Shown here one piece after another: positions 5,939-27,348 of a stretch of 36,311 nucleotides of DNA (positions are counted from its first letter, which is position 1; each line of letters starts with the position of its first letter). The notes beneath the pieces are model-generated. The model made no database searches, had not been told where the DNA came from, and saw only the letters and a list, made by a program, of their open reading frames with translations. This DNA comes from Bacteroidota bacterium (GTDB taxonomy: Bacteria; Bacteroidota; Rhodothermia; Rhodothermales; JANQRZ01), in the NCBI GenBank assembly GCA_038746285.1, contig JBCDKT010000039.1, positions 1-36,311 of the forward strand, read 5' to 3'. The translations under genes were made by a program, and so were the position numbers.

Positions 5939-7846
5939 CTACGCCGACGCCTCGCTGCCCCACTCCAGGAACTCGCGCCGCTCGATCTGCCCTTTGAGCT
6001 GCTGGAGCTGTTGCATCTCCCGCTGCAAGTCAGTCAGGTCCTCCCCGGCCTGCTCGGCGGCGTAGGTCTTGCGGACGACGAGGTCGATAGCCTCGCCGAC
6101 GCGGTCGAGCTTGAGGAGCGTCATCGCGCTCGCGGCCGACTCGTAGGGTTCGCCGTTGAGTTCGGGCACGCCGACCCCGGCCAGCTTCTGCCAGTTCTGC
6201 GAGACCGCGTGCCGGTCCACGAGCACGCCGGCGGCGATCTGCTGCACCGCCGGCCCGAACGCGCCGCCAACGAACGCCTCGCGGTCGATGGGGCCGGCCT
6301 CGTACTGCTTCAGGAGGTGCTGGACGAGGTCGCGCACCGGTCCTTCGGAGAACTCGTCGAGCCCCATGCGGCCGAGGACGTGCTCGACCATCGGGCGGCC
6401 GTGCTCCAGCATCAGCCGGACGAGCGCGCCCTCCTCGGGCCGCATCTCGAAAAAGACCGGCGTCGGCCCGTCGTCCTCCGGCAGCGGCGGCTCGGGGCGA
6501 GGCACCGAGCGCGGCGTGCTCGCCCCGCTCTTGACGAGGTCGCGGAACTGCATCCGCAGGTGGATGTCCGGCACGCCGAGCTGCTCGGCCGCGACGCGGA
6601 TGTAGCCGTCCTGCGCCACCGTGTCGGGAATCTGGGCGACCGAGTCGAGGACCGAGCGCGCCGCCTCGGCCTGGCCCTCGGGGGTGCTGAGCGTCCCGGC
6701 CCGCCGCGCGGCGGCGACCTTGAAATGCACGAAGCTCTGGCGGTGCTTCTGGAGGTAGTTGCGGAAGGCCTCGCCGCCGAACTGCTGCACGAACGAGTCC
6801 GGGTCCGAGCCCTCGGGGAGTGCGACGACGTAGGCCGCGAGCCCTTCGCGCAGGATAAGGTCGATGCCTCGGAGCGCGGCGGCGGCCCCGGCTGAGTCGG
6901 CGTCGTAGAGCAGGAGGACGCGCTTGGCGTAGCGCCCGAGCGCCTTCACCTGCTCCGGCGTGAGCGCCGTCCCGCTGGAGGCTACCACATGCTCGACGCC
7001 TGCTTGGTGGAGCGAGATCACGTCGGTGTAGCCCTCGACGAGGATCACCTCCTCCTCGCCCCGGATGGCCTGCTTGCCCTGGAACAGGCCGTAGAGCACG
7101 CGGCTCTTGCTGTAGACCCGCGTCTCGGGCGAGTTGATGTACTTCGGCGGGACGTAGTCGCCGGTCGGCGGCGCGCTGTCGGGGAGGACGCGCCCGCCGA
7201 AGCCGAGGACCTTGCCGACGTGCGAGAGGATTGGGAACATAGCCCGCTCGCGGAAGCGGTCGTGGAAGCCGTCGCCGTTTTTGTTCGGGAGCACGAGGCC
7301 GGCCGCGTCGAGCACCTCGGGCTTGACCTGGGCCGCCTCAGCGGCTTTCAGCAGTCCGTCCCACGCGTCGGGTGCGAAGCCGAGCCCGAACTTTTTGATC
7401 GTCTCCGGCGAGAGACCGCGCCCTTCGAAGTAGGCCAGCCCGCGCTGCCGGCCGGTGTCGGTGCGGGTGAGCTGCTCGTAGTACCACCGCGCCGCGAAGC
7501 GGAGGGCGTGCAGCGCCGACTCCTTCTCGTCGGCGTGCGGGTCGCCCGCGCCCTCCTCGGGCAACTCGATCCCCGCTTTCTCGGCGAGCATCCGCACGGT
7601 CTCGACGAACCCCAGCCCCTCGACCTCCATCAGGAACGAGTAGACGTTCCCGCCCTTCCCGCAGCCGAAGCACTTGAAGATGCCCATCGACGGGTTGACG
7701 TTGAACGACGGCGTCTTCTCGTTGTGGAACGGGCAGAGCCCCTTGAAGTTGGAGCCGGCCTTTTTGAGCCGCACGTAGTCGCTCACCACGTCCACGATGT
7801 CGGTGGCGGCTTTGACCTCTTCGACCTTGTCGTCGGGGATGCGCAT
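5939..7846 (-). CDS. dnaG: DNA primase
   Basis: DnaG synthesises RNA primers at the replication fork. Its 635 residues show the standard order. The CHC2 zinc-binding domain has CPFH (C38, H41) and CFGC (C59, C62). The RNA polymerase core follows, with a Toprim fold: EGYTDV (E271) and LYDADSAG (D315, D317), the metal-binding acidic residues. The C-terminal region from about 430 is the poorly conserved helicase-interacting part and ends in a Gln/Glu-rich helix. Start MRIPDDKVEEVKAATDIV matches the family's usual N-terminus. It is of normal length. The stop codon TAG at 5939-5941 lies directly against the C-rich repeat. The MOSC gene upstream is 64 bases away. Confidence 0.97.
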   Translation of the reverse strand: MRIPDDKVEEVKAATDIVDVVSDYVRLKKAGSNFKGLCPFHNEKTPSFNVNPSMGIFKCFGCGKGGNVYSFLMEVEGLGFVETVRMLAEKAGIELPEEGAGDPHADEKESALHALRFAARWYYEQLTRTDTGRQRGLAYFEGRGLSPETIKKFGLGFAPDAWDGLLKAAEAAQVKPEVLDAAGLVLPNKNGDGFHDRFRERAMFPILSHVGKVLGFGGRVLPDSAPPTGDYVPPKYINSPETRVYSKSRVLYGLFQGKQAIRGEEEVILVEGYTDVISLHQAGVEHVVASSGTALTPEQVKALGRYAKRVLLLYDADSAGAAAALRGIDLILREGLAAYVVALPEGSDPDSFVQQFGGEAFRNYLQKHRQSFVHFKVAAARRAGTLSTPEGQAEAARSVLDSVAQIPDTVAQDGYIRVAAEQLGVPDIHLRMQFRDLVKSGASTPRSVPRPEPPLPEDDGPTPVFFEMRPEEGALVRLMLEHGRPMVEHVLGRMGLDEFSEGPVRDLVQHLLKQYEAGPIDREAFVGGAFGPAVQQIAAGVLVDRHAVSQNWQKLAGVGVPELNGEPYESAASAMTLLKLDRVGEAIDLVVRKTYAAEQAGEDLTDLQREMQQLQQLKGQIERREFLEWGSEASA

Positions 7847-7910
7847 GGGAAGGCTCCTGCGGAGCCTGCGGTTGGGGCGACTGAGGAGTACGCGCGGGGC
7901 GGCGCTGCGT

Positions 7911-8399
7911 TCACACCGGCCGGACCGCGTCGCCGACGCGGAGCGTGCCTTCGGTCAGCACCTCGGCGCGGAGGCCGCCGCGCCGGACGAGGGCGTCGAA
8001 GATCGCCTCCTGCCCGGTCACGCGCACGAGGTACTTGCAGGGCGCGCAGACCCGCACGCCGCACAGCCGCACCGCGCCGACGGTGAAGACCTGCTTCTTC
8101 CACTCGGCCAGCGGCACGCCGCGCACGACGAGGTTGCGCCGGTGCTCCCCCGCCGAGAGGTGCACCCCGAACTCGGCCTCGGCCGCGGCGAGCGCGTCGG
8201 CGTCGATGAGGGTCACCTCGCGGAGCGGTCCGGGCCAGCGGCTGAACGCGCCCTCGCCCTTCCAGTAGCGGTCCCCCTCCAGCCCGCGCCCCGGCACGGC
8301 CCGCACGGCCTCGACCGACTGCACCGGGGCCTTCGCTGTGGGCGCGATGAAGATCGCTTCGAGCGCGCCCGCTTGGGCCGGATTGCCTGGTGAGGTCAT
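7911..8399 (-). CDS. MOSC domain protein (second of two)
   Basis: A 162-residue MOSC-domain protein. VPGRGLEGDRYWKGEG, LIDADALAAAE, SAGEHRRNLVVRGVPL and the Cys-containing CGVRVCAPCKYL block are the family's characteristic segments; CAPCKYL contains the likely functional cysteines. The product of the family is a sulfur-carrier or reductase-type oxidoreductase module, but the substrate here is not evident. The ATG at 8399 is preferred: the longer open frame (to 8462) runs through the terminator hairpin at 8419-8453 and is not protein-like. It differs clearly in sequence from the MOSC protein at 2772-3344, so the two are not a recent duplication. It precedes dnaG on the same strand by 64 bases. 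Confidence 0.85.
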   Translation of the reverse strand: MTSPGNPAQAGALEAIFIAPTAKAPVQSVEAVRAVPGRGLEGDRYWKGEGAFSRWPGPLREVTLIDADALAAAEAEFGVHLSAGEHRRNLVVRGVPLAEWKKQVFTVGAVRLCGVRVCAPCKYLVRVTGQEAIFDALVRRGGLRAEVLTEGTLRVGDAVRPV

Positions 8400-8418
8400 G
8401 CCGCAACATACGCCCCAC

Positions 8419-8453
8419 AAAAAAGCCGCCCAGTCTGCGCGAGACCGGGCGGC
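8419..8453 (-). terminator. Intrinsic terminator
   Basis: On the minus strand a 12-bp stem (GCCGCCCGGTCT with AGACTGGGCGGC, one mismatch) with a 5-base loop is followed by six T. It lies 30 bases after the stop of the Ig-like lipoprotein gene and separates that gene from the second MOSC gene. Confidence 0.9.
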
Positions 8454-8482
8454 CAGAGCCACGGCGTCCTACCCCCGAAGGC

Positions 8483-9982
8483 TCAGAAGTCTTCCGTGAC
8501 GAGGTCTTGCGTCAGCCCCTCGCCGAGCGGGGAGCGCGTGAGCTGCAAGTTGCCGTTGGGGCTGCTGACGCTGATCGTGATCGTCTCCACCTCGGGCGGC
8601 AGCGGGAGGTCGTCCTCGCCCTCCTCGTCGCCCTGCACGACGGCAAACGTGAACCGCGTCGTCCCGCTCCCCGGGCAGAGGTAGTCGCCGAGGACGACGT
8701 TGACGTCGCCGACGGCCTCGACGTTCACGCCGTCGGCAGCGACGGTGATCACGGAGCCCGGGGCGAGCGGGTGGCCGAAGAGGTCGGACACCGTGTAGCG
8801 GTACCCCTGGAGTTCCAGCCCTTCGGTTACCAGGTCTATCGTCGTCTCCGCAGAGAACAGGATCAACCCGTTGGTCTCGATCTGCTCCTGGTTCATGTCT
8901 GCGGTGCTGGCCGTGATCACCCCGTAGCCTCGGGGGTCGGCGTCGGGGCAGGCGGCGGGCGGCGTGCCCGCGTTGAAGGGGGGAGCCGAGAGCAGCGTGA
9001 CACTGGCCTGCCCGAGTGCATTGGTTTGGGCGGCCCCTTCGATGATGCCCGTGCTCGTCGTGAAGTAGACCGCAGTCCCAGGCTGCACCGGGTTCGCGTA
9101 GATGTCCCCGACGACCGCCTCGACGGTCCTCGAAACGTTCAGAACCTCGTAGCCCGGAACGTTACGCTCCGCGATGCCGATGCCGAAGTGGGCCTGGTCC
9201 GGCAGGCCGCCGGTGATCGTGATGATGACGGGAAGCGAGGCGATCTCGACGCCGTCGCTGTTGGTCGCGGTGGCGCGGATCTGGACCGTCCCAGCGACGG
9301 TGCCGCTGGAGAGCGTGGTCTGGACCCGGCCCGAGGCGTTGGTCTCGTCGCTCGCGGGCGCGAGGAACTCACCACCGCCGGGACCGCTAGCGATCGCAAA
9401 GTTGACGGTGATAGCGTTGTCCGTGTCGACTGGGTTGCCGAAGGCGTCGAGCACGACGAACGTGAGCGTCGCGGTCTCGTCGGCTCCCGCGCTTCGGACG
9501 GCGATGGTCGTCGAGGAGCGGTCGACGAGCGTGATGCTGGCCCCGGGGCCGGAGCCTTCGTCCGCGCCGTCATCGACGCCGCCGCCGGTGTCCCCACCGC
9601 CGCCGTCGTTGCCGCCGTCGTCCTCGCTGTTTCCCCCGAGTCGGGTGAGCACGATCGAAGGCACCGGGGTGACCTGGTCGATGAAGACGGTGACGCTGCG
9701 CGGCGAGGCTTCCACGAAGTCGTCGGCGAACACGCCGAGGGCGATGACCGTCCCCGAACTGTCCACCTGAAGGTCGAGCGCGTAGTTACCCGACCCGTCC
9801 GTGACGGTCGAAGCGCCGAACTCCGCCGCGACGACGTTGGCGCCGCCAATGGCGCTTCCGCTGCTGTCGGTCACGCGTCCGGAGATCGTAGCGGTGCCGC
9901 TCTCGTCGGTCGAGTCGCAGCCGGCGACGAGCACGCCGAGCAGCAGCGTGCAGGGCAAGAGAAAGCGAGATAGGGTATGCAT
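8483..9982 (-). CDS. Surface lipoprotein with carboxypeptidase-regulatory-like and Ig-like (Big_1-type) domains
   Basis: A 499-residue predicted lipoprotein. The signal peptide ends in the lipobox LVAGC (C22). Residues about 30-112 form a carboxypeptidase-regulatory-like beta-sandwich (ISGRVTDSSGSAIGGANV...DGSGNYAL). A Gly/Asp-rich linker (about 116-145) follows. Then come two or more Ig-like repeats of the bacterial Ig-like domain 1 kind, recognisable from AFGNPVDTDNAITVNF...ETNASGRVQTTLSSGTVAGTVQIRA and YANPVQPGTAVYF...TNALGQASVTLLSA. Proteins of this make-up are usually outer-membrane or cell-surface adhesins or structural proteins; the ligand is unknown. It is a single-gene unit with its own terminator at 8419-8453. 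Confidence 0.8.
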   Translation of the reverse strand: MHTLSRFLLPCTLLLGVLVAGCDSTDESGTATISGRVTDSSGSAIGGANVVAAEFGASTVTDGSGNYALDLQVDSSGTVIALGVFADDFVEASPRSVTVFIDQVTPVPSIVLTRLGGNSEDDGGNDGGGGDTGGGVDDGADEGSGPGASITLVDRSSTTIAVRSAGADETATLTFVVLDAFGNPVDTDNAITVNFAIASGPGGGEFLAPASDETNASGRVQTTLSSGTVAGTVQIRATATNSDGVEIASLPVIITITGGLPDQAHFGIGIAERNVPGYEVLNVSRTVEAVVGDIYANPVQPGTAVYFTTSTGIIEGAAQTNALGQASVTLLSAPPFNAGTPPAACPDADPRGYGVITASTADMNQEQIETNGLILFSAETTIDLVTEGLELQGYRYTVSDLFGHPLAPGSVITVAADGVNVEAVGDVNVVLGDYLCPGSGTTRFTFAVVQGDEEGEDDLPLPPEVETITISVSSPNGNLQLTRSPLGEGLTQDLVTEDF

Positions 9983-24996: not shown

Positions 24997-26328
24997 TCAC
25001 TCGTCGCTCGTCGCCCGTTGTTCGTCGCTTGCCAGCGCGCTGGCGAGGTCGGCGAACGGGACGCTGCGCTGCTCGCCGGTGTCCATGTCCTTGACCTGCG
25101 CGGCCTCGGCCGCGAGTTCGTCCTTGCCAATGATGACGGCCGTGCGGGCGTTCTGGCGGTTGGCCTCTTTCATCTGCGCCTTCAGCGAGCGCCCCCGCAC
25201 GTCGAGCCCGACCGCAAGGCCCGCCCGCCGCAGCCGGTGCGCCGCGGCGAAGACCCACCGCTCGGCCTCGTCCCCGAGCGCGACGAGGAACGCCGCCGGA
25301 TCGGGCCGATCAGGAAGAGGGATAGACTGCGCGTCGAGCGCGAGGAACAGCCGCTCGAACCCGGCCGCGAACCCGACTGCCGGCACGGCCTGCTTGCTCC
25401 CGACCGCCTCGGCGAGGCCGTCGTAGCGCCCGCCGCCCGCGAGCGCGCTCTGCGCCCCGAGGTCGTCGCTCTCCAGCTCAAACGCCGTCTGCGTGTAGTA
25501 GTCCAGCCCGCGCACGAGCCGGGGGTCCTCGGCGAAGTCGATCTCCAGGCTCGTGAGGAGCATCTTGACCGTCTCGTAGTGTCCGCGGCTCGCGTCGTCC
25601 ACGAAGTCGATCAGGAGGGGCGCGTCCTCCAGCAGGGTCTGCTCGTCGGGGCTCTTGGTGTCGAGGATGCGGAGCGGGTTCGTGTCGAGGCGGCGGCGGC
25701 TGGTCTCGGAGAGGGCGTCGGCGTGCGGGGCGAGGTGGGCGCGGAGCGCCTCGCGGTAACGCGGCCGGCTCGCGGCGTCGCCGAGGGTGTTGACGCGGAG
25801 CCGCGTCCCGGTGATGCCGAACGCCTCGTAGACGGCGACCATGCAGGCGATCGTCTCGGCGTCGGCGCGGGGGTCGTCGGTGCCGAGCGTCTCGGTGCCG
25901 AACTGGTGGAACTGGCGGAAGCGGCCCCGCTGCGGGCGCTCGGCGCGGAAGCACGGGCCGACGTAGTAGAGCTTCTGCGTCCCACCGCGTTGCTGCAGGT
26001 GGTGCTGGAGGTACGACCGCATGACCGGTGCCGTGATCTCGGGCCGGAGGACGTAGTCGGTGCTTCCCTTGGTGAAGGCGAACATCTCCTTCTGCACGAT
26101 GTCCGTCGTCCCCCCGACGCCGCGCGCGACGAGGTCGGTCGGCTCGAAGACCGGCGTGCGGATCTCCTGAAAGCCGAACCGCTGCATCACGCCGCGCACC
26201 GTCGCCTCGACGTGCCGCCACGCCGCGCTGCCATAGACCGTCGCCCCGCCCGCGTCGTAGGCATCGGGCAGGATATCGAACGTGCCGGGGATGTTCTGGA
26301 AGTTCACTTGTCTTTTGTCAGTTGTCAT
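24997..26328 (-). CDS. hisS: Histidyl-tRNA synthetase
   Basis: HisRS charges tRNA-His. The 443 residues hold class II motif 1 (FGFQEIRTPVFEPTDL), motif 2 (YYVGPCFRAERPQRGRFRQFHQ), the His-specific LVRGLDYYT and ALAGGGRYDGL, motif 3 (GFAAGFERL) and the C-terminal anticodon-binding domain (VGLDVRGRSLKAQMKEANRQNA). Length is normal. Both ends are built from short repeats: the start codon and MTTDKRQ come from a TGACAACTGACAA-type repeat, and the C-terminal ASDEQRATSDE from an ACGAACAACGGGCGACGAGCG-like one, so these few residues are unlikely to be ancestral. The start overlaps the gene upstream by 11 bases. Confidence 0.96.
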   Translation of the reverse strand: MTTDKRQVNFQNIPGTFDILPDAYDAGGATVYGSAAWRHVEATVRGVMQRFGFQEIRTPVFEPTDLVARGVGGTTDIVQKEMFAFTKGSTDYVLRPEITAPVMRSYLQHHLQQRGGTQKLYYVGPCFRAERPQRGRFRQFHQFGTETLGTDDPRADAETIACMVAVYEAFGITGTRLRVNTLGDAASRPRYREALRAHLAPHADALSETSRRRLDTNPLRILDTKSPDEQTLLEDAPLLIDFVDDASRGHYETVKMLLTSLEIDFAEDPRLVRGLDYYTQTAFELESDDLGAQSALAGGGRYDGLAEAVGSKQAVPAVGFAAGFERLFLALDAQSIPLPDRPDPAAFLVALGDEAERWVFAAAHRLRRAGLAVGLDVRGRSLKAQMKEANRQNARTAVIIGKDELAAEAAQVKDMDTGEQRSVPFADLASALASDEQRATSDE

Positions 26329-26330
26329 TG
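26308..26330. repeat. TGACAACTGACAA-type repeat at the hisS start
   Basis: On the minus strand this reads CAATGACAACTGACAAAAGA. It contains both the TGA stop of the gene at 26318-26851 and the ATG start of hisS. It is a short quasi-tandem repeat (TGACAACTGACAA) unlike the coding sequence around it. Confidence 0.5.
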
Positions 26331-26851
26331 GTCGACCGGCAGAGACGATCGCTTAACTCCTTTAGCGTGTCCGCTCTCGAGGCCACGCGCGTTTCGACCT
26401 TCAAGCCTGAGGCAATACACTCGAATGTGGAATCGTGGAACGTGAATACGAAATGCCGAAGCTGTTCGAACCGCTCTGGCCGATGATAAGGGTGTACCGC
26501 GTTCATTCGCTCTAGTCGGCGCACCCACGACGAATGCTTTACCTCAAACGCGCTGTAGGGACGTAACCCACGTTCTGCCAGCGGGTGTCCCTCGAATGCT
26601 TCGTCATTCGGCGGCCCGAACATCGATGCGTAGCACGAAGAAAACGACACAATCGCCGAAGGCTCAGACGAAGAAGTGAGACTCGCGACACGAACCGTAC
26701 TTCCGCCCCACCTCTCTGGCCCATTCTGTACATAATAGAGGAGGTGCAACGTGTGCTCATCACTGAGAACAACAGGAAGGGGCGCACCGACCGATGACTG
26801 CGGCACTTCACCTAGTTCGACGACTCGATCCTGCTCGTCTATCTGATACAT
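26318..26851 (-). CDS. Conserved-looking hypothetical protein of low GC
   Basis: A 177-residue soluble protein with no recognised domain name. It resembles a family of hypothetical proteins I recall with the segments VPQSSVGAPLPVVLSDEHTL, MFGPPNDEAFEGHPL, RGLRPYSAFEVKHSSWVRRL and ERMNAVHPYHRP, then HFVFTFHDSTFECIASG. The density of His, Asp, Ser and Trp suggests an enzyme or ligand-binding protein, but that is a guess. Base composition is unlike its neighbours: 28 of 60 bases are G or C in 26401-26460, against 41 of 60 in 25621-25680 in hisS. This points to recent acquisition. It sits between the EIIA gene (5 bases) and hisS (11-base overlap). Confidence 0.82.
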   Translation of the reverse strand: MYQIDEQDRVVELGEVPQSSVGAPLPVVLSDEHTLHLLYYVQNGPERWGGSTVRVASLTSSSEPSAIVSFSSCYASMFGPPNDEAFEGHPLAERGLRPYSAFEVKHSSWVRRLERMNAVHPYHRPERFEQLRHFVFTFHDSTFECIASGLKVETRVASRADTLKELSDRLCRSTNDN

Positions 26852-26856
26852 GTAAA

Positions 26857-27348
26857 CTATACTGCCAACTCAGCCTCGGCCTCGCGGAAGAGGTCGAGCA
26901 CCTCGGACGGCGAGACGGCGGCGAGGAGGGCGTCGCGGAAGGCGGGGCGGTTCATCAGGCGCGAGATGCGGCCGAGCAGCTTGACGTGGTGCCCCCGCTC
27001 CCCCTCCGGGCCGACGAGCAGAAACAGCAGCCGCACCGGCTCGCTGTCGTGCGACTCGAACGGGACCGGCCCGGCGGTCGTGGCGAAGGCGGCGACGGTC
27101 CTGCGCACGTCCGTCGTCCGGGCGTGCGGCAAGCCGAGCCCGAGGCCGACGCCCGTCGATAGCTTGGCTTCCCTCGCGAACACGTCCTGCCGCACGCGGT
27201 CGAGGTCGCCCACCTCGTCGTGCCCGTCGAGGAGGTCGATGAGCGCGCCGAGCACGGTTGGCTTGTCCGCGCCCTCCAGCCCGACACGGACGGTCGTGGG
27301 GCTCAGCAGGTCAGCGATGGAGAGGGTGTCAGGCACGGCGTCCGGCAT
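26857..27348 (-). CDS. PTS fructose-type EIIA domain protein (PtsN-like)
   Basis: A 163-residue single-domain EIIA of the fructose/mannitol (PTS_EIIA_2) type. The phospho-acceptor His is in GVGLGLGLPHARTTDV (H75), with the family's REAKLSTGVG just before and VRLLFLLVGPEGERGHHVKLLGRISRL after. No permease, HPr or enzyme I gene is adjacent, so a regulatory role like that of PtsN is more likely than sugar transport. The start at 27348 gives a normal N-terminus (SIADLLSPTTVRVGLEG). Upstream lies a degenerate copy of the dispersed repeat element. Confidence 0.9.
   Translation of the reverse strand: MPDAVPDTLSIADLLSPTTVRVGLEGADKPTVLGALIDLLDGHDEVGDLDRVRQDVFAREAKLSTGVGLGLGLPHARTTDVRRTVAAFATTAGPVPFESHDSEPVRLLFLLVGPEGERGHHVKLLGRISRLMNRPAFRDALLAAVSPSEVLDLFREAEAELAV

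What the first reader, a model, noticed from the sequence alone, without database searches (positions are those of the whole stretch)
26318..26851. Low-GC conserved-looking gene wedged between EIIA and hisS
G+C is about 47% over 26401-26460 against about 68% in hisS. The gene overlaps hisS by 11 bases and follows the EIIA gene by 5, so it is tightly fitted despite foreign composition. It has strong internal motifs (FGPPNDEAFEGHPL, ERMNAVHPYHRP) typical of a real, selected protein of unknown function.
Basis: partly seen in the sequence, partly recalled or inferred. Interest (0 to 1): 0.5.

Follow-up and report, generated by a model that had tools for sequence, protein, structure and literature searches.

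The report
Wandering cassette gene lodged beside hisS
A small foreign gene sits between two ordinary bacterial genes; its relatives are scattered over many phyla, in some cases as mobile integron cassettes, and it may encode a protein that protects the cell from toxins of rival bacteria.

Summary
An intact 177-codon ORF (26318-26851, minus strand) is the low-G+C point of the window (55.4% against a mean of 69.3%). It starts 5 nt after the EIIA stop; its 11-nt overlap with hisS depends on which hisS start is used.

No convincing relative was found in 39 related genomes, nor a significant match to known families or PDB sequences. Yet 22 loci encode relatives at 44-61% identity in at least seven phyla. 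In L027 the relative is the second cassette of a complete integron (intI, attC-gene-attC); L031 and L022 have weaker attC-like sites on both sides.

The window's genome has an integron integrase elsewhere, but no attC was found beside this gene. In the one same-genus genome held, the EIIA-hisS gap has a different low-G+C ORF, weakly like immunity protein Imm32; the same-family genome has a 53-nt spacer.

Function is inferred: an orphan immunity protein. One acidobacterial relative directly follows an Rhs protein whose C-terminus resembles those of haemagglutinin (CdiA-type) toxins, and the predicted fold weakly resembles an immunity protein. Lateral origin is firm, cassette delivery likely, immunity plausible but unproven.

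The parts
26318..26851 (-). ORF of 177 aa, the acquired gene (P0001)
26307..26849 (-). segment (543 nt) that stands in place of an unrelated 260-nt segment in the same-genus genome G001; flanks align on both sides
26850..26865 (-). left junction shared letter for letter with G001: GCAGTATAGTTTACAT, which includes the EIIA stop codon
26857..27348 (-). PTS EIIA-2 (ptsN-like) gene just upstream
   Evidence: EIIA stands before hisS in 17 of 20 hisS loci, own included
24997..26328 (-). hisS as listed from its upstream ATG (MTTDKRQVNFQ...)
26305..26307 (-). GTG codon aligned with the hisS start of G001 and G002; likely native start
26308..26327 (-). run of degenerate 7-nt units (TGACAA-like) across the gene stop and the first hisS ATG

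Best explanation
The ORF was acquired by the genus or species from a widely wandering single-gene family that travels, at least in part, as integron cassettes. It became lodged as a promoterless passenger in the EIIA-hisS gap, where read-through from EIIA could express it, and its attC site is no longer recognisable or was never there. It most likely encodes an orphan immunity protein: it would bind and neutralise the C-terminal toxin domain of an Rhs or CdiA-type polymorphic toxin delivered by a neighbouring cell. Shown: foreign composition, patchy distribution over phyla, cassette form in another genome, an integrase in this genome, a different occupant at the site in the sister species. Inferred: delivery by the integrase, expression from the EIIA promoter, and toxin neutralisation.
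For: Composition. No convincing match in 39 relatives (17 of them ring at E <= 1, best E 0.002 over 71 residues). In 395 genomes of the phylum, own included, the profile rings in four: the window, one full-length divergent relative, one copy with three stops and one fragment. 22 relatives at 44-61% identity, by record title and treekit lineage in Acidobacteriota, Verrucomicrobiota, Planctomycetota, Pseudomonadota, Cyanobacteriota, Chloroflexota and Spirochaetota. There is one per genome in 21 of 22, and two fragments on two contigs in the other. Phyla are mixed in the tree. Gene G+C is below the rest of its locus in 21 of 22. Cassette form: L027 has intI, an OmdA/DUF1801 cassette, attC, the relative, attC, and further attC-bounded units. 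Over all 22 loci, 9 of 44 flanks have an attC-like hairpin at control frequency under 0.05, where about 2 are expected. The window genome has IntI at 456.6 bits against a cut-off of 265. Alternative occupant in G001: P0004, G+C 51.5% in a locus of 64.7%, Imm32 E 1.4e-5, 25.3 bits against a cut-off of 27. G000 has no match to it or to Imm32, and G001 has none to the window's ORF at E 1e-5. Immunity: in L037 the relative starts 22 nt after an Rhs protein whose last 101 aa match five plasmid records, two of them annotated haemagglutinin-type proteins. I opened four of the five: in all four a small ORF follows in the immunity position, and in three an RNA 2'-phosphotransferase stands next to it, as in L037. 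The AlphaFold model has pLDDT 87.6. The two structural matches that stand out are 5v77_B (Z 5.9, rmsd 3.5, 88 aligned) and the immunity protein of 8owu (Z 5.8, rmsd 4.5, 96 aligned); the next entry is at 3.4.
Against: No attC-like site above control flanks the window gene (best 0.178) and none the G001 ORF. In 15 of 22 loci no flank is under 0.05. A toxin gene next to a relative was recognised at only one of 22 loci, plus a 20-codon remnant at a second. No known immunity family matches the members scanned. The fold matches are in the range that may mean only a common arrangement (the tool's own note); Foldseek E-values are only 0.011 and 0.096. The plasmid immunity-position ORFs are not shown to be the same family (best hmmsearch E 0.22; profile comparison probability 4.8%, P 0.008; in a local repeat 2 of 200 column shuffles scored as high). 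The strongly conserved polar block is more like a ligand-binding or catalytic site than a fast-changing immunity interface.
Confidence: 0.45

Rival explanations
1. Lateral gene acquired without any integron: illegitimate or homology-assisted replacement of the spacer by a stray fragment; the cassette form in other genomes is only one of several ways in which the family travels.
For: No attC at the window site or in G001; in 15 of 22 loci no flank has an attC-like hairpin at control frequency under 0.05. Some relatives are fitted a few nt before a thiolase-like gene (L024, L033, by eye). IntI matches reach the cut-off in only 8 of 22 genomes with the gene, two of these with a stop inside.
Against: Integrases over the cut-off in 17 of 40 genomes of the window and its relatives; cassette form shown in L027; two different small ORFs with low G+C at one site in sister species.
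Confidence: 0.35
2. The protein is an enzyme or ligand-binding protein useful by itself (for example in detoxification or RNA repair), not an immunity protein.
For: Polar residues N82, D83, E84, H89 invariant in A1 and H120, H123, H133, H139, D140, E144 nearly so, over many phyla (N82 is C in L040). RNA 2'-phosphotransferase next to one relative (L037).
Against: No match to any enzyme family by sequence. Rhs-linked position in L037; one of the two structural matches that stand out is an immunity protein.
Confidence: 0.3
3. Ancient gene of the lineage that was lost in all relatives and has drifted to low G+C.
For: Vertical keeping seems to occur locally elsewhere (L024 and L033 share the place before a thiolase-like gene, by eye).
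Against: Absent from the same-genus and same-family genomes; nearest rows in the tree are from other phyla; composition far from the host's.
Confidence: 0.04
4. Assembly error, contamination or a spurious ORF.
For: Genome is in 134 contigs with 2.56% estimated contamination.
Against: Both flanks continue into EIIA and hisS that are syntenic with G001 and 85% and 92% identical in protein; the ORF is a full-length member of a conserved family.
Confidence: 0.02

Closest known systems
Integron gene cassettes (including insertions outside the integron at attG sites, Loot et al. 2024, seen only as a reference entry in PMC11023631 and as a cited statement in a passage of PMC12444791)
   Same: Single ORF of low G+C, patchy over phyla; a relative lies between attC sites in an integron (L027); integrase present in the genome
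   Different: No attC is recognisable beside the window gene and no clear recombination core can be named at the junction
Immunity proteins of polymorphic toxins (CdiI/RhsI, names recalled; [quoted passage not shown]
   Same: Small protein; one relative follows an Rhs toxin-type C-terminus; weak fold likeness to the 8owu immunity chain
   Different: No known Imm family matches; very conserved sequence; no toxin gene beside it in the window
Imm32 (PF15566)
   Same: The different ORF at the same site in the same-genus genome scores E 1.4e-5 to it
   Different: That ORF is unrelated in sequence to the window gene and falls under the Pfam cut-off (25.3 against 27 bits)

Membership tests
Integron gene cassette | ORF with its own attC recombination site at the 3' end | tested here: not met
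   No attC-like hairpin beyond control in the 220-nt flanks of the window gene (a home-made scan); gene stop directly abuts hisS
Integron gene cassette | Members of the family lie between attC sites in an integron | tested here: met
   L027: intI, attC on both sides, gene stop inside the attC core; L031 and L022 with attC-like sites on both sides, the second side weak (control frequency 0.004/0.087 and 0.068/0.047)
Integron gene cassette | Integron integrase in the host | tested here: met
   TIGR02249 456.6 bits, cut-off 265, in the window's genome
attG-type insertion | Junction at a G-TT core with the attC-side sequence next to it | tested here: inconclusive
   A GTT lies at the left junction (TAGTTTAC) but it is shared with the other occupant's site in G001, so the cut point cannot be placed; the feature itself is recalled
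Polymorphic-toxin immunity protein | Encoded directly downstream of a toxin C-terminal domain | tested here: inconclusive
   Met in L037 (22-nt gap after an Rhs protein) and by a 20-codon remnant in L039; not met in the window; none recognised in the other 20 loci, of which only the nearest ORFs were read
Polymorphic-toxin immunity protein | Match to a known immunity family | tested here: not met
   No Imm family at E <= 1 in Pfam for the 22 members of A1; no NCBIfam match for P0001
Polymorphic-toxin immunity protein | Fold of a solved immunity protein | tested here: inconclusive
   8owu_E Z 5.8, rmsd 4.5, 96 aligned; below Z 8, which the tool says may mean only a common arrangement
Polymorphic-toxin immunity protein | Neutralises a toxin | not testable with these tools
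   needs a growth assay
Known anti-phage defence protein | Match to a PADLOC model | tested here: not met
   0 of 22 members of A1 at E <= 1

The most novel reading that the evidence does not exclude
The EIIA-hisS gap of this genus is a landing site where integron-borne orphan immunity genes of unrelated families replace each other, so that a housekeeping operon gives them a ready promoter. The window's gene belongs to an undescribed immunity family against an Rhs/CdiA toxin type that is regularly accompanied by RNA 2'-phosphotransferase, which may undo the damage done to RNA by that toxin.
Probability: 0.2. Interest if true: 0.65.

Novelty: new member of a known kind. Interest (0 to 1): 0.42.

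Why it matters
It gives a testable family to a gene that looked like an orphan. The family is spread thinly over at least seven phyla and, in part, travels as integron cassettes. It also gives a case of two different foreign small ORFs held at one site in a housekeeping gene pair of sister species. If the immunity role is right, it links integrons to the spread of orphan immunity genes and points at a toxin type that goes with RNA 2'-phosphotransferase.

Tried and rejected
Searches for a known family: Pfam, NCBIfam, PHROGs, PADLOC, PDB sequences, phage records and viral contigs gave nothing usable. BNR_2 at E 0.1, and single-member matches such as Adeno_PIX at E 0.0078, were rejected as chance. 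Fold search against viral proteins: best E 0.053. No PDB chain reached Z 8.

A first, strict attC scan missed the obvious L027 sites and a second was noisy (48 hits against about 20 in shuffles). The second, the only one run on L067, did not flag the attC-like repeats that I read by eye beside the integrase of the window's genome. Only the flank scan with 527 control windows and the direct reading of L027 are used. In one search the nine flanks under 0.05 include L030, whose hit lies 106 nt off inside another ORF, and L035, with one side at 0.047; I lean on neither.

The four divergent Paraburkholderia plasmid relatives (three opened) showed no toxin or attC context that I could read. The Rhs C-terminus was found in no other of 396 genomes of the phylum of L037. 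Its AlphaFold model is too poor to search (pLDDT 50.8), so I made no fold search with it. Sequence kinship between the window family and the plasmid immunity-position ORFs was tested and is not shown (in one search the highest shuffle score, 126.8, looks like an artefact of the program). P0004 finds no plasmid match and no clear relative in the loci held, so that its family travels as a cassette is not shown. Neighbours of the relatives were read for the two nearest ORFs on each side and ten proteins, nine of them neighbours at seven loci, went to Pfam; this is no systematic search for toxins.

Paper searches for the motif and 5v77, for cassettes with immunity proteins, for PIM7 and for KptA with toxins listed no paper on this family by title or abstract start; this is not proof that none exists.

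Full report
WHAT IS THERE. The window carries, on the minus strand, an EIIA-2 gene (27348-26857), the ORF in question (26851-26318) and hisS (26328-24997). The ORF is 177 codons, uninterrupted and single in its genome. It is the compositional low point of the window: 55.4% G+C against a mean of 69.3% (sd 3.2) for 534-nt windows sampled every 50 nt, and third-position G+C 60.5% against 93-94% in its neighbours. The quoted 47% for 26401-26460 is right (46.7%). The 11-nt overlap with hisS depends on the hisS start. Relatives G001 and G002 begin MTFQNI, which aligns with VNFQNI in the window, so GTG 26307-26305 is the likely native start and the upstream ATG lies in a short degenerate 7-nt repeat.

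NEIGHBOURHOOD IN RELATIVES. Among 20 hisS loci (own genome and 19 others; one of 21 genomes gave none) EIIA was found before hisS in 17. By the measure the spacer runs from -2 to 152 nt in 15 of them; it is 266 nt in the same-genus genome G001 and 549 nt in the window. G001, whose HisS is 92% identical, shares 16 nt at the left junction letter for letter and the hisS start region on the right. Between them it has 260 nt with a different 78-aa ORF (P0004, 51.5% G+C in a locus of 64.7%), which resembles Imm32 at E 1.4e-5, 25.3 bits against a cut-off of 27. G002, same family, has a 53-nt spacer. The window's genome shows no match to the G001 ORF or to Imm32, and G001 none to the window's ORF (at E 1e-5; best E 0.28). 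So the gap took up different foreign ORFs in two sister species, or one replaced the other. Only one other genome of the genus and one more of the family were among those searched.

THE FAMILY. A scan of genome contigs (one genome for each of 84,980 species) confirmed 22 relatives out of 106 candidate stretches, at 44-61% identity. By record title they belong to Acidobacteriota, Verrucomicrobiota, Planctomycetota, Pseudomonadota, Cyanobacteriota, Chloroflexota and Spirochaetota; two titles give no phylum. Each genome has one copy, except one with two fragments on two contigs. MFGPPNDE and HPL are invariant in the 22 rows of A1 (window and 21 relatives), and S108, W109, N117, H120, H123, H133, H139, D140 and E144 are nearly so; L040, left out of A1, has C for N82. 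In 395 genomes of the window's phylum the profile rings in four: the window, one full-length divergent copy, one copy with three stops, one fragment. In a tree of 22 proteins (5 of 19 inner branches well supported), Acidobacteriota and Planctomycetota each need at least 2 changes on well-supported branches; the nearest rows to the window are a gammaproteobacterial and two acidobacterial ones. Labels are still more clustered than chance (10 changes against a shuffled mean of 13.3, as low in 0 of 200). Gene G+C is below that of the rest of the locus in 21 of 22 (mean difference 6.3 points). This is lateral travel with local vertical keeping: L024 and L033 hold the gene at the same place before a thiolase-like gene (by eye).

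THE VEHICLE. L027 reads as a textbook integron. In order it has intI (420.9 bits; G046:C3:2592-3527), a first cassette (OmdA/DUF1801), an attC of about 63 nt, the relative, whose stop codon lies inside the next attC core, that attC, and then further attC-bounded units; the repeat occurs five times in all. A home-made flank scan against 527 control windows finds attC-like hairpins on both sides of L027 (control frequency 0.008 and 0.028), L031 (0.004 and 0.087), L022 (0.068 and 0.047) and L023 (0.047 and 0.008), and on one side of L038 (0.008). In all, 9 of 44 flanks are under 0.05, where about 2 are expected; in 15 of 22 loci neither flank is. Integrase matches over the curated cut-off occur in 8 of the 22 genomes, two of them with a stop inside; in 17 of 40 genomes of the window and its relatives; and in the window's own genome (456.6 bits; C27:8944-9900). 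There the integrase lies beside GCATAAC...GTTATGC repeats that look to me like attC sites, though my own scan did not flag them. Against delivery, neither the window gene nor the G001 ORF has an attC-like flank above control. Delivery by the integrase, followed by loss of attC, is therefore inferred. Insertion of cassettes at non-integron attG sites is described by Loot et al. 2024, of which I saw only the reference entry in PMC11023631 and a citing passage in PMC12444791.

THE LIKELY JOB. The AlphaFold model is good (pLDDT 87.6, pTM 0.84). Foldseek's best PDB matches are 5v77 (uncharacterised, Neisseria; E 0.011, probability 0.99) and 8owu chain E (complex of polymorphic toxin PT7 and immunity protein PIM7; E 0.096, probability 0.84). 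That chain E is the immunity partner is my reading of the entry title; no call states it. Re-alignment gives Z 5.9 (rmsd 3.5, 88 aligned) and Z 5.8 (rmsd 4.5, 96 aligned), then a drop to 3.4 for the next entry; by the tool's own note such Z values can be a common arrangement only.

Context gives the stronger hint. In L037 the relative starts 22 nt after an 876-aa Rhs protein (RHS_repeat E 5.2e-32, Rhs_assc_core E 1.3e-18) and is followed at once by RNA 2'-phosphotransferase (PF01885, E 1.3e-34). L039 keeps the last 20 codons of that Rhs end just before its relative. The Rhs C-terminus matches five plasmid records at 36-42% identity, two of them annotated haemagglutinin-type proteins. I opened four of the five. 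In all four a small ORF follows in the immunity position, and an RNA 2'-phosphotransferase stands next to it in three (annotated in L115 and L116, my reading of the frame in L118; not seen in L117). The relative in L037 thus sits where those loci have their putative immunity gene. Sequence kinship between the two is not shown: best hmmsearch E 0.22, hhalign probability 4.8% with P 0.008, and in a local repeat 2 of 200 column shuffles scored as high. At the other 20 loci I recognised no toxin gene among the nearest ORFs, as expected for orphan immunity genes but also for a different function.

VERDICT. What it is: a member of a wandering single-gene family without a match in the family libraries searched, which includes a genuine integron cassette. 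The best functional guess is an orphan immunity protein. Ordinary in kind, but a good case with two testable claims: occupation of one housekeeping gap by different foreign ORFs, and an immunity family for a toxin type that goes with RNA 2'-phosphotransferase.

Noticed in passing
G000 contig C27, locus L067 about 6390-9900: The window's genome has a full-length integron integrase with attC-like repeats upstream of it and genes between them, one read as a Fic-type protein; repeats and gene names by eye only.
   Followed up: partly
L115, L116, L118, L037: RNA 2'-phosphotransferase (KptA/Tpt1) stands beside a haemagglutinin- or Rhs-type C-terminus of one kind and its immunity-position gene in four loci; same strand in L037, opposite strand in the other three.
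   Followed up: partly
window 26308-26327: Run of degenerate 7-nt units (TGACAA-like) at the hisS start; 2 matches against 0.14 expected.
   Followed up: no
L024 and L033, just before a thiolase-like gene: The family member is fitted a few nt before the same gene in two genomes, so it seems to have been kept vertically as an operon gene there.
   Followed up: no
L107 (G299) 1483-2040 minus: A divergent full-length member in another family of the same phylum, near an aspartate carbamoyltransferase-like gene (by eye).
   Followed up: no
L112 5004-5453, L113, L114: Divergent Paraburkholderia plasmid members at 33-40% identity; of the three opened only that of L112 is listed as a gene.
   Followed up: partly
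L110 (G001 C2:223169-223309): The same-genus genome has a second Imm32-like stretch, over the Pfam cut-off (31.4 bits), in a 257-codon open frame elsewhere.
   Followed up: no
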